Assembly: GCA_016213785.1 (NCBI GenBank)
Contig: JACQZQ010000025.1
Location: 1-64,000 of the forward strand
Direction of reading: 5' to 3'
Source: Acidobacteriota bacterium
Lineage (GTDB): Bacteria; Acidobacteriota; Blastocatellia; Chloracidobacteriales; JADJPF01
Length of the DNA stretch: 64,000 nt
The translations under genes were made by a program, and so were the position numbers. Of this stretch, positions 1 to 16,603 are shown in pieces (the stretch's first letter is position 1; every line of letters begins with the position of its first letter). The notes under the pieces are model-generated. The model worked only from the letters and a program-made list of their open reading frames with translations, did not search any database and was not told the DNA's origin.

Positions 1-90
1 AAAGGTGTTAGTAAGCGTTCCATTGCTAGGATTGTTGAGTGTTCTCCTTCCACTCTTTATGATTGGCTTAAACGTAGGAAAATTTCGTAA
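1..90 (+). CDS. C-terminal tail of a transposase or HTH protein, cut by the window edge
   Basis: Frame 1 is open from the first base to a TAA at 88-90 and encodes about 29 residues. They contain a helix-turn-helix pattern: RSIARIVECSPSTLYDWLKR. Such a 'repeat motif, Ser-x-Thr-hydrophobic-x-x-Trp-Leu' helix is common in transposase DNA-binding domains (IS1 InsA-like, IS630-like and resolvase-type HTH). No start is visible because the gene begins outside the window. It lies only about 100 bp before an FGE-sulfatase gene that lacks its normal N-terminus, so an insertion may have removed that end. Family assignment is weak because only the tail is visible. Confidence 0.45.
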   Translation, partial: KGVSKRSIARIVECSPSTLYDWLKRRKIS

Positions 91-188
91 GCCTTATTTG
101 AATCTCATGAGAGTTTTGGTACCTTTGTTGGAAAATACCCAGGAATCAACAATGGGTACAAATAGAACTACCACAACATAAAGTAAAA

Positions 189-803
189 GTGCCAGCATTT
201 TATATAGGAAAATACCAAGTAACCCAAGAACAGTGGGAAGAAATAATGGGGAATAATCCAAGTTACTTAAAAGGAGATAATAAACTGCCAGTAGAAAATG
301 TGAGTTGGGAAGATTCAACAGAGTTTTGTAAGAAACTATCAGAAAAAACAGGAAAAGAGTATAGATTACCAAGTGAGGCAGAATGGGAATATGCCTGTAG
401 AGCAGGAAGTGAAACGCCATTTGCATTTGGAGAAACAATAACACTTGAGATAGTAAACTATAAGGGTAAATATCCATATGGAGAAGCACCCAAAGGTAAA
501 TATAGAGGGAAGACAACGCCAGTAGGGAGTTTAGGAGTAGCTAACGAATTTGGGTTATATGACATGCATGGTAATGTATGGGAATGGTGTCAAGATCCCT
601 GGCATGACAACTACAGTAATGCGCCAACAGATGGCAGTGTCTGGGAACTTACACCTAGTAATAATATGCCCCGGGTCTTGCGAGGTGGTTCGCGCAAAGA
701 CCTTGCTTACAACTGTCGTAGTGCCTACCGCGACAGGAGCACGCCGGACCTACGTTACAACATCAGTGGGTTGCGTGTTGTTATGTTTTGCGCGGACTCT
801 TAA
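189..803 (+). CDS. FGE-sulfatase (SUMF1/C-type-lectin fold) protein, 5'-truncated, likely DGR target
   Basis: The 204 residues form most of a formylglycine-generating-enzyme-like (FGE-sulfatase) domain: [12 protein letters not shown] near residue 5, [14 protein letters not shown] near 60, [13 protein letters not shown] near 117, and RVLRGGS followed by a Cys-Arg-Ser-Ala stretch near 163. The GTG at 189 is only the first possible start. The same frame is open upstream to 111 and encodes residues resembling the usual lead-in (ELPQHKVKV), while a GTF-like piece lies in another frame near 118. The N-terminus is therefore probably truncated or frameshifted. The C-terminal 45 residues have the composition and layout of a diversity-generating retroelement variable region. 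In DGR targets this fold usually displays a hypervariable ligand-binding surface rather than making formylglycine. Confidence 0.75.
666..803 (+). repeat. Putative DGR variable region (VR) at the 3' end of the FGE-sulfatase gene
   Basis: This stretch is visibly richer in G and C than its surroundings. Many codons end in C (cgc, gac, tac, aac, tac, cgc, gac, agc, gac, tac, aac, atc) although neighbouring codons mostly end in A or T. DGR variable regions come from template repeats rich in AAC codons, whose adenines are replaced, giving NNC codons at surface positions of a C-type-lectin-fold domain. The encoded pattern (RGGS, variable block, NCRSAYRDR, variable block, GLRVV) matches that class. 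No template repeat or reverse transcriptase is present in the window, so the call rests on composition, position and fold. Confidence 0.6.
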
Positions 804-1091: not shown

Positions 1092-1349
1092 ATGAGTACA
1101 TTGCGTAATTTTCATGTTCCGTTACCAGCAAATGTATATGGGCAGTTAAGAGAAGAGGCAGAGAAAAGAAAAGAACCAGCAACAGTAATAGCAAGACAAG
1201 CAATAGAATATTGGCTTAAAGAACAAAAAAAGGTAGCCAGAAGAGCAGCTATTTATGAATATGCCAAAGAGGTAGCGGGCAGTTCAGAAGATTTAGACGA
1301 AGAACTTGAAGCTGCTGGAATAGAATGTTTACTGGAGTCTGAAAGATGA
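1092..1349 (+). CDS. Ribbon-helix-helix-type antitoxin of a MazEF/PemIK pair
   Basis: The 85-residue protein begins with a short beta-strand pattern (TLRNFHVPLPANVYGQLREEA), followed by two helices (ATVIARQAIEYWLKE). This is the layout of a ribbon-helix-helix DNA-binding antitoxin. The C-terminal half is acidic (EDLDEELEAAG), as expected for the part that wraps the toxin. ATG 1092 has an AGGAG-type ribosome site seven to eight bases upstream. Its TGA overlaps the toxin ATG by four bases (ATGA), so the two are translationally coupled. The antitoxin probably represses its own promoter in the 804-1091 gap. The exact RHH subfamily cannot be told from sequence alone. Confidence 0.8.
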   Translation: MSTLRNFHVPLPANVYGQLREEAEKRKEPATVIARQAIEYWLKEQKKVARRAAIYEYAKEVAGSSEDLDEELEAAGIECLLESER

Positions 1350-1687
1350 AGAGAGGGGAAGTGTATTTGGCAGATCTAGCACCGCGTTCTGGCTCAGAAC
1401 AAACAGGAAAAAGGCCAGTAATTGTGGTTTCTAATGATGGTTTTAATAGTTTAGCTAATTGGCGTTCTATAATTGTTATTCCAGTTTCTACCAATCGTGC
1501 AAGAAAAGGAGAAACTTTGGTCAATATTGCAAAAGGTGTAGCTGGTTTGGCTGATGATAGCGTTGCTTTATGTCACCAAATTACTACTATTGACCGTTCC
1601 AAATTTATCAATTATCTAGGTGAGTTACCTCAAAATTTGATGATGGGTATTGAAACAGCTATCAAAGCAGCTTTGGATATGGATTAG
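1346..1687 (+). CDS. mazF: MazF/PemK/Kid-family mRNA interferase toxin
   Basis: The 113-residue protein has the MazF/PemK signature: MKRGEVYLADLAP at the N-terminus, then GSEQTGKRPVIVVSN, then the strand IIVIPVSTN, and the segment GLADDSVALCHQITTIDRSKF. In this family the conserved Arg of the GxEQxGxRP-type loop and the Ser/Thr of IPxSTN contribute to the RNase site, and the toxin cuts single-stranded mRNA at short motifs. The start overlaps the antitoxin stop. The pair sits between a DGR-like gene and a repeat cluster, a typical mobile neighbourhood. Length and motifs appear intact, so it should be active unless neutralised. Confidence 0.88.
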   Translation: MKRGEVYLADLAPRSGSEQTGKRPVIVVSNDGFNSLANWRSIIVIPVSTNRARKGETLVNIAKGVAGLADDSVALCHQITTIDRSKFINYLGELPQNLMMGIETAIKAALDMD

Positions 1688-3052: not shown

Positions 3053-6000
3053 CTATTTAATTTCTCTTATAATACGAAAACCTGCATACTCATGACGAGT
3101 TTCAGGAGTATTAGCAACACGAAAAGCAAGCCTACAAAGATTTTCAGGATAAAACCAACCGCCTCCTCGTGCAATACGATATATTCCAGAATTTAATACT
3201 TTTGGATCTATAGTTTTTTCGCTAGGGTAATCTGCATATGAATCCAAACACCATTCAAAGACATTCCCACACATATCATAAAGCCCCCATTTATTGGGGC
3301 TTTTTTTCCCTACAGGATGGGTAGTTTTATCAGAGTTATCTTGATACCAAGCTATATCATCTATTTTTTCTGAGTAGTAACTTCCTTTAGTCCCTGCTCG
3401 TGCAGCATATTCCCATTCTGCTTCAGTTGGTAATCTATATGTTTTCCCTGTTTGTTTTGATAATCTGGCACAAAATTCCACCACTTCATACCAATCTACA
3501 TTTTCTACAGGTAATTCATCGCCCTGAAAATAGGAAGGATTGATACTAAGAACTCTGTTTATTTTAGGTAGTGCAGCTACAGTTTTCCACTGTGCTTGCG
3601 TTACCTCATATTTACTCATATAAAATGGAGAAAGAGTCACTTGATGCAAAGTTTCATCGCCATTACGTAACTTATCAGTCGTAGGTGAACCCATTTCAAA
3701 ATCACCCCCTTCTATTTTTACCATTTCTATTTTTGTCTCATCAACTGATTCTATTTCATATATGGCATTAGTGTTTTTTTGATTTTTTTGATTTTTTTGA
3801 TAGTTTTCAGAAAGTTTTTCAGGTTGTTTATTTGTTAGTTGAGTCTTTACTTCTAGTCGGCCATCCTTTAAATAAACAGATGATTTAGTATTTACAATTT
3901 TTAGTACTTGTTCATAGGCTCTTTCCTCTGGCACTAATGACCATATTTTTGAGGTTTTATCTTCACTTGCTGTTAATATTTTTTCTCCATTACTAGAAAA
4001 TACACCACTATTTAAGCTATTTTGGTGTTCTGCCAAAACAACTAAAAATTTACCTGTGTCTCTTTCCCAAACCCTTGTAGTTTTATCATAAGAATTAGTA
4101 ATAATTAGCTTACTATCAGGGCTAAATCCGCCTGTTTGTATATCTGCCTTGTGAGTAGATAAGGTATAGACTAAGTTACCTATTGTGTCCCAAATACAAG
4201 CTGTTTTATCTCCACTAGTAGTTAAAATATTCTTTCCATCAGGGCTAAATTTTGTGTCTGTAATACTGGCTTTATGCCCAGTTAGTGTAGCAAGTAGTTT
4301 ACTTTCAGCTACTTCCCATATTTTGGCTGTAGTGTCTGTACTTCCAGTAACTATTAATTTGGAGTCAGGGCTAAACTCAACACTCACTATACTAGATTTA
4401 TGACCAGTTAGGGTTGTTTTTAATTCACCATTCTCAATATCCCAAATATTAACTACTTTATCTGCTCCAGCAGTTGCCAGCCATTTACCATTTTTACTAA
4501 AAGACAGTGCATAAATAATTCCTTGATGTCTTTTTAGAGTGTGTATTAACTTACCGTTACTACCATCCCAAATCTTAGCTGTTTTATCATAACTTATTGT
4601 TGCAATCTTTTTTCCATCAGGGCTAAACTTAGCACCTTGGAGCCAATCATTATGACCAGAAAGAGTTGTAACTAAACTACCGTCAATAACTTTCCATAGT
4701 TTAGCCGTTTTGTCTAAACTAGCAGTTACTAATAGTTTTCCATTAGCGCTAAAATCAATAGAGATAACCTCTCTATCATGTCTTAGTATAAAAAGCTCTT
4801 TACCATCAATAGCTTGCCAGATTCGAGCAGTTTTATCTCTACTAGAAGTTGCAACTAGAGTATCATCAGGGCTAAAAACAGCAAATGTTACTGCATCTCT
4901 ATGGTTATCAAGTGTAACAGAAGAATGTTTTTCTAAGGCTGCCAATGCAACTGAAAGCATATACCTTAATGCCAAACTATTAGCCCCTTTTGCGTAAGCC
5001 TCACTTAAATAAACAGCTGCACCTTCTACATTACCTTTAAGCATTTCTTGACGACCTTGTTCTTCATAAAGTTCTAAGGTTTGAAATAGCTGTTTTTTTG
5101 TTTGTTGTCTTTGATAGAACATCACTGCTGAACCTACTATTAGCACAATTATTGTAGTTAGGACTAAGGTTTTTTTTATACGCTGAGAACGGCTTGATTC
5201 CAATAGGCTCGTATTTATAAACTCTTCTTCTATATCTGTTAGTTTTCCTTTATAGCGTTCTTTCCAAACTTGGTATTCTATTAATATTTCATCTCTCCAT
5301 AATAATCCTTTAGTTTTACTATGCTCATTCCATTGACGTGTGGCAGCACGAAGTTGTTCTTTTAGTCTTGCTCCTTCTGTTATTTCTTGTCGCCATTTAG
5401 CTAAACGAGGCCAAGCTGAAAGTAGTGCTTCATGGACTACTTCTATTCTATCTATTCCTTTTTCTCCTTCAGTGCTAACTAGAAGTCTAGCAAGAATTAA
5501 TTTTTCTATCAGTGCTTCACTATCAGCAGTTTTCCCAAGTAACTGTGATAATTCTAGACGTGTTAAAATAGCTCTTGTGTTTTCACTTGTAACCAAGTGT
5601 TGAAAAGCTTCACGAACAAGGGTTTGTTCTTTTTGTGTCATTTGCTCCATAACTTCTTCAGCATGACGAGCTAAAGCGCCTCCAACACCACCCATAGCTT
5701 CATAGCTTCTTCGCCTAAGTTGCTTAAACTCTTTATCACGTTGTTCCCAAAGCTTTGCAGCAGTAAAAGCTAGTAGAGGTAAAGCGCTAGTTTGTTCTGT
5801 TAGTTTATTTACAATTTCTACAGGAAGTTCTTGATCTTCAAATTCATAACCTGTGCGTTTAGCTGGTTCAATAAGAATTCTAAGAAGTTGGCTTGAACCA
5901 GGAGTTGTAAGAAGTTCTAGACTTTGAGCAAGACGGTCTTTTAATCCTCTAAAGTCTTTAACTCTAAAAAGAAAATCATCTCTAACTGTTAATATTACTC

Positions 6001-8866
6001 TAAGTAAGTCTTCTTCTGATTGTGCAGATGAAATTATTGCTTCTACATAAAGATGTTGTTCTTCTTTATCTAAACAAAGTGTTAGGATTTCCTCAAATTG
6101 GTCTACTATTAAAAGTAGGGTTTTATTTTCTTTTCTAGTAAATTTTTGTAGGATTTTATATAAAAAGTTTATGTCTTTTTTTAAATTGTCTTTTAAGTCT
6201 GAAACTTCTATTCCTATGGTAGAGAGCTTTCTAGCAAGTGTAATAAGAGGAGAAAGCCCTGGTCGAAGAGTTATAACTTGCCAGTTTTCATCAAGCCTAG
6301 CAACAATACCTGCTTGGATAAAAGAGCTTTTACCTGCTCCTGATGGCCCTGCTACTATCAATAGAGATTGCACACGTAAGCGATTAAGAAAGCTTTCAGT
6401 CTCTTTTTCTCTACCTAAAAATAAAGCTGAATCTGCTGGCGAAAATGTAGCTAACCCTAAATATGGAGATTTTTCTAAAAATGTAGCTGTTTTTTCTTTT
6501 TCTTCTCCTATAACAAAATTTTCCTTAAACCATTGCCATGGACTTTCTGTTTCTATTTCAAAACCATCAGGAAATGATACTAGCTTTGCGCTACTACGAC
6601 CTTTTGATTCAAACAAAAAGACTTCTTGGTACGCACCTGGAGTTGGAGAAGATATTTCTATTAAAGGCCAAAGCGACAGTACAAAATAACCGTTAGGATC
6701 TACTAAAACAGCTTTACCATCAGATAAATTTTTATTTTTTAACATAATTGTACTAATCTCTTTTACTGCACCCATCCACTTAGTTGCTTGTTGGCCTTTA
6801 GGCAAAACTAAATAATAATCACTTAACCATGATGTTATATTTAACAACTTAGTAAGTTTAGCTAAGAAATTAGTGAGTAAGTTTGATAGCTCTTCTTCTT
6901 TTAGCAAGGCGCTGGAGTAAAGTTCCTGTTCAAGTTGTAGTAGTTTAGTAAATGTTTCTGTTGTAGAGCTAAGTTGTTCACTATCTGGAACAAAAAAAAG
7001 CGATACAAGTTCAGGAATAGGATAAATATCGCGATCTTTTGCAAAAAAGCGACAAAGCTCCCTAGATAATTCTATCCATTGCGAGTTACTTAATCCTTGT
7101 TGACGTAGTTTTACTATTGTCTTATTAATCAAGTCGTTATTTTGTTGACCAGTATTAGCACGCCCATAACTAGCAAGCGATAATATACCTATATAGTGTA
7201 CCAAAACACGAAATAAAAATAAGGCTCTATCTTTGAATTGGTAAACATTTCGTGCCGCTATAAGATTAGCAACCGTATTAGCTAAAGGCTTAGGCGCATT
7301 AGCTAAAATATTTTCTCTTAATAACTCATCTAGTTGAGGCATTGTTATTGCTTCGATAAGACCGGCTGCTTTGCGAAATTCTTTAGCAAATTCTAAAGCT
7401 GTTTGATAACGATCTTTTGGATCCTTTGCCATTGCTTTTGCAATTACACTATCCAATAGTGGTGTAAAACCTTTTCCCAAGCTTGGTACAAGTTCATTTA
7501 AGTGAGCAGCCATTAAAACAAAAGCTGAGCCTTTAAATGGAAGTTCTCCTGTAAGTAGCTGGTAAGCTAAAACACCTAAAGAATAAATATCGCTGCGAGC
7601 ATCAACTTTCGTACTATTTTCTATTTGTTCTGGCGACATATAAGCAGGAGAACCTATTATTCCTTCTGTTCTAACCACATATGTTTCCTGTTTTTTGGAA
7701 CTGGCTTCGCTACCAACTAATGACTTAGGCGTATTAACTGTACTTTCTTTTAATATCTCATCTAATTTAGGTAAAATTATTTCTTTACTAAAGCCTGCTG
7801 CTTTGCGAAATTCTTTAGCAAATTCTAAAGCTGTTTGATAGCGATCTTTTGGATCTTTTGCCATTGCTTTTGCAATTACATCTAGTAATAAAAGCTTACT
7901 TGAGTAAACAGGTATTAAACTAAGCTTAGAGTCTTTAAGAGGAAGTTCTCCTGTAAGTAGCTGGTAAGCTAAAACACCTAAAGAATAAATATCGCTGCAA
8001 ACATCAGCCTTTGTAGTATTTTCTATTTGTTCTGACGACATAGGAGAGCCTATTACTCTTTCTGTCTTAACTATCTCGCTCTCCTGCTTTTTAAGAAGTG
8101 TGGTTTTAGTTGGTTCTAAAAGGTCTTTTGTCTCTTTATCTTCTTGGTGTTTTTGAGTGTCAATAGTTTTAAGGGGGTCTTTTTCTGATTTAGTTTTTGT
8201 TATTACTTCTCCATCTTCTTGGTTAATAACAGCATCAGGTTTCTCTTTAGGAGCAAAGTTATTAAAGTTATTGTCTTGGCTATAAATTAAGCCATCATTT
8301 AGGGTAGAGTTCTTACCTGTAGGGATATTTATACTTTTATCAAGAGTAAGGTTTTGATTAAAGGCTTTAGCAATACCAAAATCTAGAAGTTTAGGGAGAA
8401 GACGGCCAGCACGAATAATCATCATAATATTAGCAGGTTTAATATCACGATGGACTATGCCTAGTTCGTGTGCAGTATGGACAACTTCGCAGATTTTATC
8501 TAATAAATCAACAAAACGTTCTAAAACGATTGGGCCTTGTATTTTTATAAGCTTATTTAGAGGAGTACCTTGGATTAACTCCATAGCAATCCACATTAAC
8601 CCATCACTTTCAACTCCAAAGGCATAAATATGGGCAGTATAGGGATGCTCAAGGCGTGAAGCCAGATGTGCTTCACGCCTAAACCTTTCTATTACTTCTA
8701 TATTTGCTCTATGATTTGCATGTAGGACTTTTATTACGGCTGGGCGGTCTAAAGTGATTTGTTGCGCCCTATACACAGCACCAAAACCACCTTCTCCTAG
8801 TTTTTCTTTAACTAAGAAATCTCCTAAAATACGTCCAATAATTGGGTCAGGTGTCTTAATAGCCAT
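3053..8866 (-). CDS. Giant Ser/Thr kinase - STAND NTPase - WD40 - FGE-sulfatase fusion protein
   Basis: This 1937-residue protein carries at least four modules. (1) Kinase N-lobe with LGEGGFGAVY (23-32), Lys46, HRDIKPAN (139-146) and DFG (162-164). (2) A low-complexity insert of about 100 residues, then two copies of the kinase C-lobe (about 270-380 and 400-505). (3) After an unassigned stretch, a P-loop NTPase of the novel-STAND type with AGPSGAGKSS near 838 and a Walker B LLLIVDQFEE. (4) A membrane-spanning segment near 1230-1252. (5) About seven WD40 repeats (about 1320-1650), then a C-terminal FGE-sulfatase domain (about 1715-1937; MVKIEGGDFEMGSP, RLPTEAEWEYAARAG, GLYDMCGNVFEWC). Such STAND/WD40/FGE architectures occur in bacterial signalling and conflict proteins. 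It lies 34 bp after rmlB. Confidence 0.9.
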   Translation of the reverse strand: MAIKTPDPIIGRILGDFLVKEKLGEGGFGAVYRAQQITLDRPAVIKVLHANHRANIEVIERFRREAHLASRLEHPYTAHIYAFGVESDGLMWIAMELIQGTPLNKLIKIQGPIVLERFVDLLDKICEVVHTAHELGIVHRDIKPANIMMIIRAGRLLPKLLDFGIAKAFNQNLTLDKSINIPTGKNSTLNDGLIYSQDNNFNNFAPKEKPDAVINQEDGEVITKTKSEKDPLKTIDTQKHQEDKETKDLLEPTKTTLLKKQESEIVKTERVIGSPMSSEQIENTTKADVCSDIYSLGVLAYQLLTGELPLKDSKLSLIPVYSSKLLLLDVIAKAMAKDPKDRYQTALEFAKEFRKAAGFSKEIILPKLDEILKESTVNTPKSLVGSEASSKKQETYVVRTEGIIGSPAYMSPEQIENSTKVDARSDIYSLGVLAYQLLTGELPFKGSAFVLMAAHLNELVPSLGKGFTPLLDSVIAKAMAKDPKDRYQTALEFAKEFRKAAGLIEAITMPQLDELLRENILANAPKPLANTVANLIAARNVYQFKDRALFLFRVLVHYIGILSLASYGRANTGQQNNDLINKTIVKLRQQGLSNSQWIELSRELCRFFAKDRDIYPIPELVSLFFVPDSEQLSSTTETFTKLLQLEQELYSSALLKEEELSNLLTNFLAKLTKLLNITSWLSDYYLVLPKGQQATKWMGAVKEISTIMLKNKNLSDGKAVLVDPNGYFVLSLWPLIEISSPTPGAYQEVFLFESKGRSSAKLVSFPDGFEIETESPWQWFKENFVIGEEKEKTATFLEKSPYLGLATFSPADSALFLGREKETESFLNRLRVQSLLIVAGPSGAGKSSFIQAGIVARLDENWQVITLRPGLSPLITLARKLSTIGIEVSDLKDNLKKDINFLYKILQKFTRKENKTLLLIVDQFEEILTLCLDKEEQHLYVEAIISSAQSEEDLLRVILTVRDDFLFRVKDFRGLKDRLAQSLELLTTPGSSQLLRILIEPAKRTGYEFEDQELPVEIVNKLTEQTSALPLLAFTAAKLWEQRDKEFKQLRRRSYEAMGGVGGALARHAEEVMEQMTQKEQTLVREAFQHLVTSENTRAILTRLELSQLLGKTADSEALIEKLILARLLVSTEGEKGIDRIEVVHEALLSAWPRLAKWRQEITEGARLKEQLRAATRQWNEHSKTKGLLWRDEILIEYQVWKERYKGKLTDIEEEFINTSLLESSRSQRIKKTLVLTTIIVLIVGSAVMFYQRQQTKKQLFQTLELYEEQGRQEMLKGNVEGAAVYLSEAYAKGANSLALRYMLSVALAALEKHSSVTLDNHRDAVTFAVFSPDDTLVATSSRDKTARIWQAIDGKELFILRHDREVISIDFSANGKLLVTASLDKTAKLWKVIDGSLVTTLSGHNDWLQGAKFSPDGKKIATISYDKTAKIWDGSNGKLIHTLKRHQGIIYALSFSKNGKWLATAGADKVVNIWDIENGELKTTLTGHKSSIVSVEFSPDSKLIVTGSTDTTAKIWEVAESKLLATLTGHKASITDTKFSPDGKNILTTSGDKTACIWDTIGNLVYTLSTHKADIQTGGFSPDSKLIITNSYDKTTRVWERDTGKFLVVLAEHQNSLNSGVFSSNGEKILTASEDKTSKIWSLVPEERAYEQVLKIVNTKSSVYLKDGRLEVKTQLTNKQPEKLSENYQKNQKNQKNTNAIYEIESVDETKIEMVKIEGGDFEMGSPTTDKLRNGDETLHQVTLSPFYMSKYEVTQAQWKTVAALPKINRVLSINPSYFQGDELPVENVDWYEVVEFCARLSKQTGKTYRLPTEAEWEYAARAGTKGSYYSEKIDDIAWYQDNSDKTTHPVGKKSPNKWGLYDMCGNVFEWCLDSYADYPSEKTIDPKVLNSGIYRIARGGGWFYPENLCRLAFRVANTPETRHEYAGFRIIREIK
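7310..7880 (-). repeat. In-frame tandem duplication of the kinase C-lobe, period about 432 bp
   Basis: Within the large kinase gene, GCTGCTTTGCGAAATTC and following bases occur at 7365 and again at 7797, almost identical for over 60 bp, giving a 432-bp (144-codon) period. Both copies encode SDIYSLGVLAYQLLTGELP and KDPKDRYQTALEFAKEF. The first protein copy has lost the canonical activation-loop end (GSPMSSEQ); the second keeps it (GSPAYMSPEQ). Confidence 0.85.
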
Positions 8867-10214: not shown

Positions 10215-11777
10215 ATGAATAGAAAAAGAGTTTTGATTTTTATTGTTGCCTATAATGCAGAAAAACATATTGAGTCTGTACTAAATAGAATACCTAGTGT
10301 ATTTTGGCAGGATGATATCTATGATTCAGAAGTACTTATTATTGATGATGCTTCAAAAGATAAGACAGTTGAAGTAGCTAACCGATATAAATTACTTACA
10401 GGTAGAAATATAAAAGTACTAAGAAACCCTGTAAATCAAAGATATGGTGGAAATCAAAAAATTGGTTATACCTATGCAATAGAACAAAATTTTGATGTAG
10501 TAGCACTTTTACACGGTGATGGTCAATATGCTCCTGAAATGCTTGATACTTTGATATCGCCTATTGCTAAGGGTGAGGCAGATGTAGTTTTTGGTTCTCG
10601 AATGATGGAAAAACAAAGTGCATTAAAAGGTGGGATGCCTTTTTATAAGTTCTTAGGTAATATAATACTTACCACAACTCAAAACCTTTTGCTTAAATCT
10701 AACTTAACAGAATTTCACACAGGTTATCGCATCTATAGTGTAGATGCTTTAAGAAAAATTCCTTTTCAATATAACTCCAATGATTTTGACTTTGATACAG
10801 ATATAATTATTCAAGTTCTAGAAAATAAGTTTCGTATTTTAGAAATCCCTATTCCAACTCATTATGGGGATGAGGTTTGTCATGTAAATGGAACAAAATA
10901 TGCGATGCAAATCTTGCGTACATCTTTACTCTCACAAGTACAAAAATTTAATATCTATTACCACCCAAAATTTGACTATCATTTACATGAAAGCCCTTAC
11001 CAATCTAAAACAGAGTTTGAGAGTAGCCATACATTTGCAATAGATCAAGTAAAAGATAAAACTACAGTTCTTGATTTTGGTTGTGCTAGTGGCTATATAG
11101 CAAAAAAACTAAAAGAAGATAAAGCTTGTCGTGTTTATGGATATGATCAGCATATAAACCCAGAATCAAAAGGCTATTTTGTAGAAACGGCACAAGTAGA
11201 TTTTGATAATTTTGATTTTAATCTACCTAAAAATGAAAGTACCATCGATACTGTATTATTACTAGACGTAGTAGAGCATTTAGCCGATCCTCAAGGCTTT
11301 CTCACAATGCTTAGAGAGCGTTTAGCGGCTCAGCGTCCAGAAATTATTATGACTACAGGAAACATAGCCTTTATTCTTACTCGTTTATCGCTTTTATTTG
11401 GACAATTTAATTATGGTAGGCGAGGAATTTTAGATCTAACACATAAAAGGCTCTTCACCTTTTCTTCAATTAAACAATTGCTTAGAGATTTTGGTTATGA
11501 AATAACCAAAATTGAAGGTATTCCTGTGCCTATTCCTTTTGTTATTCCTAACAAATCTTTGGCTAGCTTTTTACTGAAGATAAACAAATTACTAATTAAG
11601 CTAAATAAAGGAATGTTTTCTTTCCAAATAGCACTAGTAGCTAAACCACTGCCAACGCTAAACTTACTACTAGCAAATGCTAAGACTCGTGGACAAGAAG
11701 AATATCAAAAAGCTTTAACAAACGTAGGTCAAAATCAAAATTTATCTAGTCGAGATAAATATCAAACTACTAAGTAA
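10215..11777 (+). CDS. Family 2 glycosyltransferase fused to a SAM methyltransferase
   Basis: The N-terminal half (about 1-230) is a GT-A fold of the DPM1/GT2 type: VLIFIVAYNAEKHIE, an IIDDAS nucleotide-binding motif near 43, and HGDGQY near 98 as the metal-binding acidic motif. The C-terminal half is a class I methyltransferase with motif I VLDFGCASGYIAKKL near 285 and VLLLDVVEHLADP further on. The protein probably transfers a sugar to a lipid or polymer and methylates a related substrate. I choose ATG 10215 because GGAG lies 10 bases upstream (10201-10204). An in-frame TTG at 10188 has no comparable site. It heads a run of four same-strand genes. Confidence 0.85.
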   Translation: MNRKRVLIFIVAYNAEKHIESVLNRIPSVFWQDDIYDSEVLIIDDASKDKTVEVANRYKLLTGRNIKVLRNPVNQRYGGNQKIGYTYAIEQNFDVVALLHGDGQYAPEMLDTLISPIAKGEADVVFGSRMMEKQSALKGGMPFYKFLGNIILTTTQNLLLKSNLTEFHTGYRIYSVDALRKIPFQYNSNDFDFDTDIIIQVLENKFRILEIPIPTHYGDEVCHVNGTKYAMQILRTSLLSQVQKFNIYYHPKFDYHLHESPYQSKTEFESSHTFAIDQVKDKTTVLDFGCASGYIAKKLKEDKACRVYGYDQHINPESKGYFVETAQVDFDNFDFNLPKNESTIDTVLLLDVVEHLADPQGFLTMLRERLAAQRPEIIMTTGNIAFILTRLSLLFGQFNYGRRGILDLTHKRLFTFSSIKQLLRDFGYEITKIEGIPVPIPFVIPNKSLASFLLKINKLLIKLNKGMFSFQIALVAKPLPTLNLLLANAKTRGQEEYQKALTNVGQNQNLSSRDKYQTTK

Positions 11778-11817
11778 AATAAGTAAAACTTTAGATTTTT
11801 AGATTGGTTTAATTCCA

Positions 11818-12225
11818 TTGGCAATAGATCAAACAAAGCAGTTAGAGCTAGAAGCAAATTTATTTGGAAACTATTTAATAGGTAAAGCGCCTAGTCAGCT
11901 TGCTATTGATTTATATTGTCAAGCAATGAAAAAGCAAGCTATTAGCCTAAAAGAAGATGAAGAAAGACAGCTAGAGTTTATTCTAAATAACCCTTGGTCA
12001 ATAGGAATGGTTGAAGGAGCATTAGCGCTCTTAAAACCACAATCTACCATTCGTAGAAAATTATTAACAATGCTTGCTATTTTAGAAACTTGCCCAGAGT
12101 ATTGTTATTTATTTTTTCCCACTAATACTTCTATATTTTTTTTAGTTTATCTTTTTTATGTTGGCTCTCGTGCAGTAGTTAAATCTCTTTTAGGAGTAGT
12201 AATAGTTAAACTAGTATGTCGCTAA
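11818..12225 (+). CDS. Hypothetical protein, 135 aa, coupled to the GMC oxidoreductase
   Basis: I do not recognise this protein. It opens with a helical stretch (LELEANLFGNYLIGKAPSQLAIDLYCQAM), then EDEERQLEFILNNPW, and has a hydrophobic C-terminal segment (SIFFLVYLFYVGSRAVV) that may be a membrane or interface helix. The apparent start is TTG at 11818, with no clear ribosome site, so the N-terminus is uncertain. It overlaps the next gene by 10 bases. Small proteins next to GMC oxidoreductases sometimes act as accessory or export subunits (gluconate dehydrogenase subunit 3 type). That role is only a guess from the position. Confidence 0.6.
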   Translation: MAIDQTKQLELEANLFGNYLIGKAPSQLAIDLYCQAMKKQAISLKEDEERQLEFILNNPWSIGMVEGALALLKPQSTIRRKLLTMLAILETCPEYCYLFFPTNTSIFFLVYLFYVGSRAVVKSLLGVVIVKLVCR

Positions 12226-13829
12226 CAGCAGATTACATTGTAGTAGGATCAGGTTGTACAGGAGCAATTGCAGCACAAACCTTAGTCGAAGCAAAGGCTA
12301 ATGTCCTTATGCTAGATGTAGGTAGCCAAGATACTAAGTATAAAACTTTAATCCCAGATAAAGATTTTATTTCTATAAGAGAAAGTGAAAAAGAGCAATA
12401 CCGCTATTTTTTAGGTGATCAGTTTGAAGCAATTCCTTGGGGAGAAATAAAAACAGGAGAACATTTAACACCACCTAGAAAGTTTATCTTAAATTTAGTT
12501 GATCGCTATCTACCTATTGATTCTAAAAGCTTTTTCCCTTTAGAAAGTTTAGCTTATGGCGGGTTAGGAAATGGTTGGGGAGTTGGTTGTTATGTTTTTT
12601 CTAAAGCAGAATTAGAAAAAATTGGTCTTGATAATTCTAAAATGATGGGGGCTTATAAAATAGTAGCCTCTCGTATTGGTATATCAGGAGCAAAAGACGA
12701 TGCTAGCCCTTATACAATTGGAGAATTAGATAATTACCAAGAAGCTTTTGAAATCGACTCAAATGCAAAATCTATCTATAAATCCTACTTAAATAAAAAA
12801 TCTGTTTTAAATGGAAAGCAATTCTTTCTTGGAAAGCCTGCTTTAGCTCTTCTTACTAAAGATTTAGGGGAGAGAAAAAAAATAGCTTATAAAGATATGG
12901 AGTTTTATAGCGATGGTGATAAAAGTGCTTATCGGCCTTGGATTACTGTTGAAGAGCTAAAAAAATACCCAAATTTTACTTATATCTCTGATAATTTAGT
13001 AATAGAATTTAAGGAAGAAATTAACCAAATAAAAGTTACTGCTCTTAACACAAATACTAATGAGAAGGTTACTTATACTTGTAAAAAACTTTTGCTAGCT
13101 TCAGGAGTTTTAGGTACTGCAAGAATTGTCTTAAGATCTTTTAAGGATGAGAATAGACAATTACCTTTATTATGTAACCCTTATGGTTATATTCCCTGCC
13201 TTCAGCTTAGAATGTTAGGAAAAGAAATAGAACAACATAAAATGGGATTTGCTCAACTCTCACTCTTTCATGACCCTAAGAGGCAAAACTTTGATGTAGC
13301 AATGGCTTCAATTTATAGTTATCGTTCTTTAATGCTCTTTCGCTTAATTAAAGAATCCCCCCTAAATTTTGTAGATGGACGAATTTTTATGAGGTATTTT
13401 CTTTCAGGGCTTGTAGTTATGGGAATACATCACCCTGAAACAAGATCTAATTCTAAATACTTGCATTTAATACCAGATAATAGCTCTATAACAAACGATA
13501 AATTAAAAATAAATTATGCTTTATCAGACGAAGAAAAACAAACTGTTAATGAGAGAGAATCTGCTTATATTTGGGCAATGCGTCAATTAGGGTGTTTTGC
13601 ACTTAAGAGAGTTAATCCTGGGTTTGGCTCAAGTATTCATTATGCTGGGACACTTCCATTTGATGAAAATAATACGGCTTATACTTTAGCCCCAACAGGT
13701 AGATTAAATCAAACTAAGGCAATTTATATAGCAGATGGGTCTGGATTTAAGTATTTACCCGCAAAAGGTCTTACTTTTTCTTTAATGGCTAATGCTCATT
13801 TAGTAGCAGAAATGGCTTTAAGAGAATAG
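12216..13829 (+). CDS. GMC-family FAD-dependent oxidoreductase
   Basis: The 537-residue protein starts with the dinucleotide-binding motif DYIVVGSGCTGAIAAQ (6-21) and ends with the GMC C-terminal pattern: GSSIHYAGTLPF near 475, and an IYIADGSGFKYLPAKG stretch like the family's closing FAD motif. The His in SIHYAG corresponds to the active-site His region. GMC enzymes oxidise alcohols, sugars or sterols. The substrate cannot be inferred, but position between a glycosyltransferase and an epimerase suggests a sugar or lipid-linked sugar. It overlaps the preceding small gene and precedes the epimerase by 12 bases, so the cluster is probably one transcript. Confidence 0.85.
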   Translation: MSLTADYIVVGSGCTGAIAAQTLVEAKANVLMLDVGSQDTKYKTLIPDKDFISIRESEKEQYRYFLGDQFEAIPWGEIKTGEHLTPPRKFILNLVDRYLPIDSKSFFPLESLAYGGLGNGWGVGCYVFSKAELEKIGLDNSKMMGAYKIVASRIGISGAKDDASPYTIGELDNYQEAFEIDSNAKSIYKSYLNKKSVLNGKQFFLGKPALALLTKDLGERKKIAYKDMEFYSDGDKSAYRPWITVEELKKYPNFTYISDNLVIEFKEEINQIKVTALNTNTNEKVTYTCKKLLLASGVLGTARIVLRSFKDENRQLPLLCNPYGYIPCLQLRMLGKEIEQHKMGFAQLSLFHDPKRQNFDVAMASIYSYRSLMLFRLIKESPLNFVDGRIFMRYFLSGLVVMGIHHPETRSNSKYLHLIPDNSSITNDKLKINYALSDEEKQTVNERESAYIWAMRQLGCFALKRVNPGFGSSIHYAGTLPFDENNTAYTLAPTGRLNQTKAIYIADGSGFKYLPAKGLTFSLMANAHLVAEMALRE

Positions 13830-14716: not shown

Positions 14717-16603
14717 TTACTTAGAGTCTGCATTTTTCTGGCTTACTGCCCAAGCAATATTATTTTTCACAAGCTGGAAATTAGGGTTAATTTCTAGTGC
14801 TTTATTACCTGCTTCAATAGCTTTATCCCATTCTTTTAAGTTAATATAGGCTACACATATATTGTTATAAGCATCTGCATTTGCTGGATTTACTTCTAAT
14901 GCTTTACTACAAGAATTGATACTTTCTTGATAAAATCCATTTTCAGAATAAATAGCACTCATGCCTACATAAGTTCTCTCTAATATTTTCTTTTGGCGTT
15001 CTAGAAGAGTTTTTCCTTGAACCGAATAAAGATGAGGGCCATAATTAAGAACTATATCGCTAAAAGCTTTAACACTTATAAGTATAATTAAAATAGAGGT
15101 TATAGCCCAAATATGGCTTTTTTGTTTTATTAAAAAACTTGGTTCTAGTTCAGAGTATTTTTCAAAGAAAATATGTAAAAAATATGCAAATAAAATAACA
15201 AGAAAAGCCCCCCAACAAAGTAATTCATAATTAATAATAATACCGCCCCAGTTACCAGTATCAGCACTAGCCAGATTCCAAGGTAGCCCTCCACTCCACC
15301 AATTATAAGTAAGAAATAAAAATAAACTTCCTGTTAAATAGCAAATTGCCATTGCTTCTAGCCCTAAAATTGTTACCCAGGGCGTTAACCAAGCTAAATA
15401 TTGCACACTAAAACCAGGGGATAAGACTATAAATAAGTAAAAAATAACCCCTACTTGATAAAAAATCTTAGTTTTTTTGCTAAATAAATTCATCCATAGA
15501 GAGACTAAAATAATCAAACCAAATACCAAAAATTTTCCATCAGTAGAGAAAAACTTATTAACCCAATGTTCATAAGGAAAATATGTTAAAAGCACTCTAG
15601 ATAATCCCCAATTACCATAAAAACTACTATAGCCAAAAGTACTCTTAAAAACTTGTAAAGGGTCTTGGAAAATATAAGGTAGCGAAGTAAAAACTACTGT
15701 ACTTAATGCACTTAATGCATATTCAAAACGGCGTTTATTATTTGGTAAGTAAAAGAAAATACAAGGAGCTAAAATAACAGGAACAATTTTAACATTTACG
15801 GCTAAACCCATAGCTATTCCAGCTAAATGATAATTGTTAATCTCATAAGTAAGAAAAAATTTATATATCGGCTCTGGTAATAACTTATCTAAACTCCTGC
15901 TATCTAAATCAATTAAGTAAACTGATAGGATAACAAAAAATATCATTATTGGGTCAGTATTACCGTGAAAGCCTGATATCATTATGGAAATAGGGCAAAA
16001 AGCTAATAACAATAGTTGTGCTAAGGAAAATTTATTATTTAATTCTAGTATTTTATAAACTACCCATAAACTACCAATATCAGCTAATGTAGGCAAAAGC
16101 CTAAGTAGAAAATTAAAACTTATTCCTACAGTCGATTCTATAAAGCCAATTAAATTAAGTAGATGAATCATCATCGGCGGATGATTCCACCAAGATAGTT
16201 TTTGATATAGGGCAATTCCTCCATATTCCCTAGCAATACTTAAAAACATCTTCCAATAAAAAATATCATTTGTTCCCATTGTATAAGCAGCTAGATATAG
16301 CTTAAATAAAGATGCTACTGCTATAGCTACCCACATAAGGCTTTTAGAACCTAAAACAAGAGGAAATAAAGATAGGGGTTGCTCTATTTTTTTGTCATTT
16401 CCTTTATCAGTCTCTCTATAAATTTTTTCTTCAACTTCTTTATTACTATCAGAATTATGTTCTTCAATATTATTTTCTTTTGAAAAAAGGTTTTCTGAAA
16501 CCTGGTTTGTGGAAGAATTAAAAGTTGTTTCGCTAGCAAGATTACTATTTAAATTAGTAATAGAATCTATCTCTTGTTTAGTTTTTTTAGTTTTTTTTCT
16601 CAT
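14717..16603 (-). CDS. GT-C membrane glycosyltransferase with C-terminal TPR repeats
   Basis: The 628-residue protein has a charged N-terminal leader (about 80 residues) and then about ten hydrophobic segments. The loop WNHPPMMIHLLNLIG and the membrane pattern HGNTDPIMIFF are typical of undecaprenyl-phosphate-sugar-dependent GT-C/mannosyltransferase-like enzymes. The C-terminus carries two TPR-like helices pairs (ADAYNNICVAYINLKEWDKA, about 560-628). Such enzymes use lipid-linked sugars on the outer face of the membrane. It is closely similar along its length to the adjacent gene at 16650, so the pair arose by tandem duplication. ATG 16603 follows from the reading frame; the basic leader makes an internal start possible. 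Confidence 0.8.
   Translation of the reverse strand: MRKKTKKTKQEIDSITNLNSNLASETTFNSSTNQVSENLFSKENNIEEHNSDSNKEVEEKIYRETDKGNDKKIEQPLSLFPLVLGSKSLMWVAIAVASLFKLYLAAYTMGTNDIFYWKMFLSIAREYGGIALYQKLSWWNHPPMMIHLLNLIGFIESTVGISFNFLLRLLPTLADIGSLWVVYKILELNNKFSLAQLLLLAFCPISIMISGFHGNTDPIMIFFVILSVYLIDLDSRSLDKLLPEPIYKFFLTYEINNYHLAGIAMGLAVNVKIVPVILAPCIFFYLPNNKRRFEYALSALSTVVFTSLPYIFQDPLQVFKSTFGYSSFYGNWGLSRVLLTYFPYEHWVNKFFSTDGKFLVFGLIILVSLWMNLFSKKTKIFYQVGVIFYLFIVLSPGFSVQYLAWLTPWVTILGLEAMAICYLTGSLFLFLTYNWWSGGLPWNLASADTGNWGGIIINYELLCWGAFLVILFAYFLHIFFEKYSELEPSFLIKQKSHIWAITSILIILISVKAFSDIVLNYGPHLYSVQGKTLLERQKKILERTYVGMSAIYSENGFYQESINSCSKALEVNPANADAYNNICVAYINLKEWDKAIEAGNKALEINPNFQLVKNNIAWAVSQKNADSK

What the first reader, a model, noticed from the sequence alone, without database searches (positions are those of the whole stretch)
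666..803. Probable DGR-diversified FGE-sulfatase end without reverse transcriptase in the window
The 3' end of the FGE-sulfatase gene has C-ending codons at variable positions, locally high GC and a C-type-lectin-fold frame (RGGS ... NCRSAYRDR ... GLRVV). These are marks of a diversity-generating retroelement variable region. The template repeat and reverse transcriptase are not in the window, so the element would act from a distance or lie just upstream. The gene is also 5'-truncated.
Basis: partly seen in the sequence, partly recalled or inferred. Interest (0 to 1): 0.7.

Follow-up and report, generated by a model that had tools for sequence, protein, structure and literature searches.

The report
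Stranded retroelement-diversified protein tip
The end of this gene was rewritten in the past by a bacterial mutation machine (a diversity-generating retroelement); the template and enzyme are missing from this assembled genome but are present in a sister species.

Summary
Window 671-793 is a genuine diversity-generating retroelement (DGR) variable region (VR). It is the only patch of its size at 58% GC in 64 kb of 33.5% GC DNA. The genome has a second such VR (contig C124). The two differ at 22 of 31 template-adenine positions but only 9 of 90 others (p 2e-10); the gene body upstream shows no such bias.

The template was found in the only same-genus genome held, a Blastocatellia (Acidobacteriota) MAG, nzgw73. 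It has a full DGR (bAvd, reverse transcriptase, template TR1, structured spacer RNA, several VRs) and a second template, TR2, cognate to the window VR. TR2's reverse transcriptase gene is broken off at an ISL3 transposase.

The window's own 6.4-Mb assembly (96% complete) shows no DGR reverse transcriptase, bAvd, template or spacer RNA. Downstream of the C124 VR only the first codons of bAvd remain. The window gene lacks its 5' end beside a transposase-like fragment, and has private non-adenine changes plus an inserted T in its homing site. Its downstream target element is intact.

Best reading: a stranded target left by past DGR activity in this lineage. Homing in trans from an unassembled DGR remains possible. 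New member of a known kind.

The parts
1..151 (+). End of a helix-turn-helix, probably transposase, reading frame (1-87) and sequence without homology to the FGE paralogues; contig edge. Marks the 5' truncation of the target gene.
   Evidence: HTH_28/HTH_23 matches; homology to C124 begins at 152; single place in the assembly
152..803 (+). 5'-truncated FGE-sulfatase / C-type-lectin-fold target gene; the first start codon reported in frame is GTG 189, inside the domain
   Evidence: PF03781 E 2.7e-49, model 21-254 of 255; PDB match to a DGR variable protein
671..793 (+). DGR variable region, cognate to template TR2 of sister genome contig C216
   Evidence: 13/31 TR2 adenines changed versus 11/90 other bases (p 8e-4); differs from the C124 VR at 22/31 versus 9/90 (p 2e-10); body control without bias
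771..795 (+). Initiation-of-mutagenic-homing-like 3' end of the VR, with an inserted T (ATGTTTTGCGC instead of ATGTCTGCGC) that shifts the frame of the last residues
   Evidence: alignments with TR2, C124 and G001 C496
804..880 (+). Conserved downstream target element: pyrimidine-rich stretch and imperfect hairpin GCGAGCGTAGCGAGCGC (840-856)
   Evidence: shared by eight VRs, absent from both templates; profile hits behind cyanobacterial VRs; hairpins in relatives

Best explanation
Window 671-793 is the variable region of a DGR target gene whose C-type-lectin tip was rewritten in this lineage by mutagenic homing: error-prone reverse transcription of a TR2-like template randomised its adenines, and the cDNA replaced the 3' end of the gene up to the homing site, helped by the downstream element at 804-880. 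The copy is now stranded. It has lost its N-terminal part beside a transposase-like fragment, its homing site carries an inserted base, and the core machinery (bAvd, reverse transcriptase, template, spacer RNA) is absent from the assembly, most likely lost with the cassette that once followed the C124 paralogue. Shown: adenine-biased differences, the cognate template in the sister genome, absence from the assembly, truncation, conserved target element. Inferred: that homing wrote it, and that the machinery was really lost and not merely unassembled.
For: Adenine-specific differences against a template found independently with a clean body control. Complete DGR in the same-genus genome: bAvd PF22296, reverse transcriptase with GNLTSQ and YVDD, TR1, VRs. 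No DGR reverse transcriptase, bAvd, template or spacer RNA in this assembly. C124 keeps the VR, the flank and only the first codons of bAvd, then a 32-bp repeat array, where G001 C349 has the whole bAvd gene. 5' truncation beside a transposase-like fragment. Four non-adenine differences from TR2 shared by both VRs of this genome fit one drifted local template.
Against: The assembly is in 132 contigs and contig edges lie close to all three related copies, so a cassette could be unassembled. The target element is not decayed. The body shows purifying selection against C124 (dN/dS 0.19), though this may be history. The AGT serine codon hints at a different template codon.
Confidence: 0.68

Rival explanations
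1. The VR is a live remote target, diversified in trans by a DGR of the same cell that the assembly or bin missed (for example on a plasmid or in a collapsed repeat), possibly with a third template whose homing site reads ATGTTTTGC.
For: Remote targets and trans activity are described for cyanobacteria (PMC7517822) and Thiohalocapsa (PMC10907252). G001 C216, which carries TR2, also has a ParA-like and a weakly phage-replication-like protein, and cyanobacterial plasmids carry 65-69% identical DGR reverse transcriptases. The homing-site insertion is shared with G001 C496. The target element is intact.
Against: Four separate searches of a 96%-complete assembly find no DGR part. The gene is 5'-truncated. 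Seven private non-adenine changes do not fit rewriting from the template that served C124.
Confidence: 0.27
2. Not a DGR product: the tip differs because FGE paralogues diverge or are under positive selection at the ligand-binding face.
For: This genome has 42 FGE-domain matches, most with a similar C-terminal layout and no VR character.
Against: Adenine-specific bias against an independently found template, opposite to the body control. GC peak unique in the window. A DGR target element follows the VR.
Confidence: 0.03

Closest known systems
DGR loci of multicellular bacteria, Thiohalocapsa PB-PSB1 (PMC10907252)
   Same: C-type-lectin targets fused to signalling or conflict domains, several loci per genome, degenerate loci with transposons and repeat arrays in place of core parts, targets without their own reverse transcriptase.
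   Different: Blastocatellia host; the machinery is absent from the whole assembly rather than from one locus; no population data here.
Cyanobacterial DGRs with remote variable proteins (PMC7517822)
   Same: Reverse transcriptase 65-72% identical, homologous spacer RNA and 3' target element, VRs at 3' ends of C-type-lectin genes next to kinase and caspase domains.
   Different: That paper reports this reverse transcriptase subgroup as not shared with other bacteria; here it is found in Blastocatellia.
Bordetella phage BPP-1 DGR target site (PMC3240598)
   Same: VR at a gene's 3' end, with a hairpin-bearing element just downstream, beyond template homology.
   Different: The element here is longer (about 75 bp) with a pyrimidine-rich stretch, and the window's own hairpin is imperfect. 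In the sister genome the template follows the reverse transcriptase gene.

Membership tests
DGR variable region (target) | Differences from a near-identical template confined largely to template adenines | tested here: met
   Against sister-genome TR2: 13/31 A versus 11/90 non-A (p 8e-4); window versus C124 22/31 versus 9/90 (p 2e-10); body control p 0.975-0.998. Weaker than the sister's own VRs (0-4 of 90-95 non-A).
DGR variable region (target) | Lies at the 3' end of a C-type-lectin-fold gene | tested here: met
   PF03781; PDB sequence match to T. denticola DGR variable protein 2y3c
DGR variable region (target) | Homing site (IMH) matching the template's end, and a downstream hairpin element | tested here: inconclusive
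   IMH present but with an inserted T and C-to-T change; element conserved but hairpin no better than shuffles in the window
DGR variable region (target) | Adenine-specific variation among cells of the population | not testable with these tools
   No reads or second strain of this species available
Complete DGR in this genome | DGR-type reverse transcriptase | tested here: not met
   RVT_1 matches in three genes, none with GxxxSQ; sister enzyme finds nothing at E 1e-30
Complete DGR in this genome | Template repeat and spacer RNA | tested here: not met
   Only the VRs and one short weak match; spacer covariance model negative here, E 4e-41 in the sister
Complete DGR in this genome | Accessory protein Avd | tested here: not met
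   No match here, two in the sister genome; first codons only beside C124

The most novel reading that the evidence does not exclude
A third, unseen template family, recognised by the ATGTTTTGC homing site shared by the window VR and G001 contig C496, lies on a mobile replicon and still diversifies such stranded lectin tips in trans, so that cells carry target genes without the machinery and are rewritten only when the replicon is present.
Probability: 0.1. Interest if true: 0.65.

Novelty: new member of a known kind. Interest (0 to 1): 0.42.

Why it matters
It shows past DGR activity in a Blastocatellia genus, with a pair of sister genomes that catch the system whole in one and apparently stripped in the other. 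It also yields two markers useful in fragmented assemblies: a covarying spacer-RNA model that detects DGRs of this lineage in Blastocatellia, Cyanobacteria and Thiomargarita, and a 3' target element that marks target genes when no template is assembled.

Tried and rejected
Template search within about 1.5 kb of the reverse transcriptase genes of this genome: none. Stable hairpin in the window's own 3' element: not better than shuffles, so the hairpin rests on position and on hairpins in relatives. Rfam on the spacer: nothing above gathering score. IMG/VR scan for a template-like 30-mer: none. Window 1-151 as a multi-copy element: only one place in the assembly, so the transposon reading is not proven. 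Reverse transcriptase tree for direction of transfer: mostly unresolved. Ordinary FGE divergence: rejected by the body control. C94 as a third VR: not significant against TR1 (p 0.15), weak against TR2 (p 0.04); treated as a relative without clear diversification. Structure prediction not run, because the fold follows from Pfam and PDB sequence matches.

Full report
WHERE IT IS. The window is the first 64 kb of contig C129 of a 6.4-Mb, 132-contig genome, 96% complete. The only same-genus genome held (G001) is the MAG Blastocatellia bacterium nzgw73, JAHFUF01, so the host is a Blastocatellia bacterium (Acidobacteriota).

THE OBSERVATION. The frame ending at 803 is an FGE-sulfatase-family domain (PF03781, positions 21-254 of 255), a C-type-lectin fold; PDB sequence matches include the Treponema denticola DGR variable protein 2y3c. 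Window 666-775 is the only place in 64 kb where 103 bases reach 58% GC (mean 33.5%), and its C- versus T-ending codons (16:14) differ from the body of the same frame (15:45; p 0.008). Of about 30 FGE ends read in this genome, only this one and contig C124 have the GC peak.

THE TEMPLATE. Searching the sister genome with the C124 VR gave nine places, one cluster of them flanking a reverse transcriptase gene. G001 contig C105 (L072) carries, in order: a caspase-like (PF00656)-FGE target with VR (11050-11181), bAvd (PF22296, 11283-11636), a 360-aa reverse transcriptase with GNLTSQ and YVDD (11633-12715), template TR1 (12765-12890), and a second caspase-FGE target with VR (14943-15072). A third TR1-type VR lies further along (L073 9218-9350). 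Against TR1 these VRs change 15/26, 16/26 and 9/26 adenines and 0, 0 and 1 of 95 other bases: a textbook DGR. G001 contig C216 holds a second template, TR2 (AAC/AAT codons at the variable places), followed by the same spacer and preceded by the 3' end of the reverse transcriptase gene, which breaks off at an ISL3-family transposase gene.

THE WINDOW VR BELONGS WITH TR2. The window VR changes 13/31 TR2 adenines versus 11/90 other bases (p 8e-4), the C124 VR 22/31 versus 6/90 (p 6e-12), and the two VRs of this genome differ from each other at 22/31 versus 9/90 (p 2e-10). The same test on the roughly 515 bases upstream of the VR gives no adenine excess (p 0.975-0.998); differences there sit mainly at third codon positions (22/20/39), unlike the VR (13/12/5). 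Both VRs of this genome share four non-adenine differences from TR2, which fits a template that had drifted in this lineage before it wrote both copies. So the DGR probably acted here after the two species parted (inference).

THE MACHINERY IS NOT IN THIS ASSEMBLY. The RVT_1 matches of this genome lie in three genes (C39, C131, C40) without the DGR-type GxxxSQ motif. The sister's enzyme finds no match at E 1e-30, bAvd none, and the template region only the two VRs and one short weak match. A covariance model of the spacer RNA, built from eight sequences with both-sided changes in 23 of 39 pairs, finds G001 (E 4e-41) and eleven other class members strongly, but not this genome; it also finds Thiomargarita, which was not in the training set (E 3e-29). 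In G001 contig C349 a TR2-type VR is followed directly by bAvd. In C124 of this genome the same flank runs into AAATATGCAAGAATT, the first codons of bAvd, then into unrelated sequence and a 32-bp repeat array of nine copies. I read this as a deleted cassette (inference); PMC10907252 describes repeat arrays and transposons replacing DGR parts in Thiohalocapsa.

STATE OF THE WINDOW COPY. Homology to C124 begins at 152; before it lies the end of a helix-turn-helix protein, probably a transposase, at the very start of the contig. The first start codon the ORF tool reports for the frame is GTG 189, inside the domain. The copy has seven private non-adenine changes and one inserted T in the homing site, turning the end VVMSARTLK into VVMFCADS. 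The same insertion, with a GCG-to-ACG/ACA change, is in G001 contig C496, whose VR has 15/90 non-adenine mismatches. So this may be an older branch that no longer homes, or one served by a template not seen. The serine codon AGT (TCT in TR2 and C124) needs two changes from TCT but one from an AAT template codon, a hint of the latter (inference).

THE 3' ELEMENT. The flank from the stop codon to about 888 is identical to C124, although the coding body is only 84% identical. Eight VRs of both genomes have the element and neither template does. A profile of it hits the same place behind VRs of Fischerella and Elainella (E 1.6e-8 to 1e-4). Tolypothrix, Pseudanabaena and another Blastocatellia (G146) have good hairpins at that place; in the window the hairpin is imperfect. 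In BPP-1 a hairpin downstream of VR is required for efficient homing (PMC3240598). I call it a DGR target element by position and conservation, not by test.

KNOWN OR NEW. C-type-lectin targets, remote VRs and degenerate loci are all known (PMC10907252, PMC7517822). No paper in the held library names Blastocatellia and DGRs together. PMC7517822 states that the cyanobacterial reverse transcriptase subgroup does not appear shared with other bacteria; the 65-72% identity of cyanobacterial enzymes to the nzgw73 enzyme and matches on cyanobacterial plasmids say otherwise, but the tree does not give the direction of transfer. Verdict: a real DGR variable region, most likely stranded; new member of a known kind.

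Noticed in passing
L072:12881-13048 and homologues (L077, L080, L083-L087): Spacer RNA downstream of the template is conserved from Blastocatellia to Cyanobacteria and Thiomargarita, with 23 of 39 pairs showing both-sided changes; Rfam gives no match above gathering score.
   Followed up: partly
window 1092-1687 (+): Small reading frame followed by a PemK/MazF-like toxin gene (PF02452): probable type II toxin-antitoxin pair just downstream of the VR gene.
   Followed up: no
window 3053-8866 (-): 1937-aa protein with kinase, nSTAND1 NTPase, WD40 and FGE domains; its FGE end has no VR character (1 C-ending to 28 T-ending codons in the last 45).
   Followed up: partly
L053:1688-1973 (own contig C124): Array of about nine 32-bp repeats some 300 bp after the point where the bAvd start breaks off.
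   Followed up: partly
L050:373-1800 (own contig C40): Reverse transcriptase gene whose RVT_1 domain is matched in two pieces, next to genes that look like type III CRISPR RAMP proteins.
   Followed up: no
L074:1127-5431 (sister contig C349): AAA ATPase, VWA protein and VR-bearing FGE protein in a row, then bAvd: resembles the ternary conflict systems of PMC7159879.
   Followed up: no
G080, G098 and G153: Three Blastocatellia genomes give strong spacer-RNA matches but no DGR reverse transcriptase at E 1e-30: possible further stripped or divergent DGRs.
   Followed up: no
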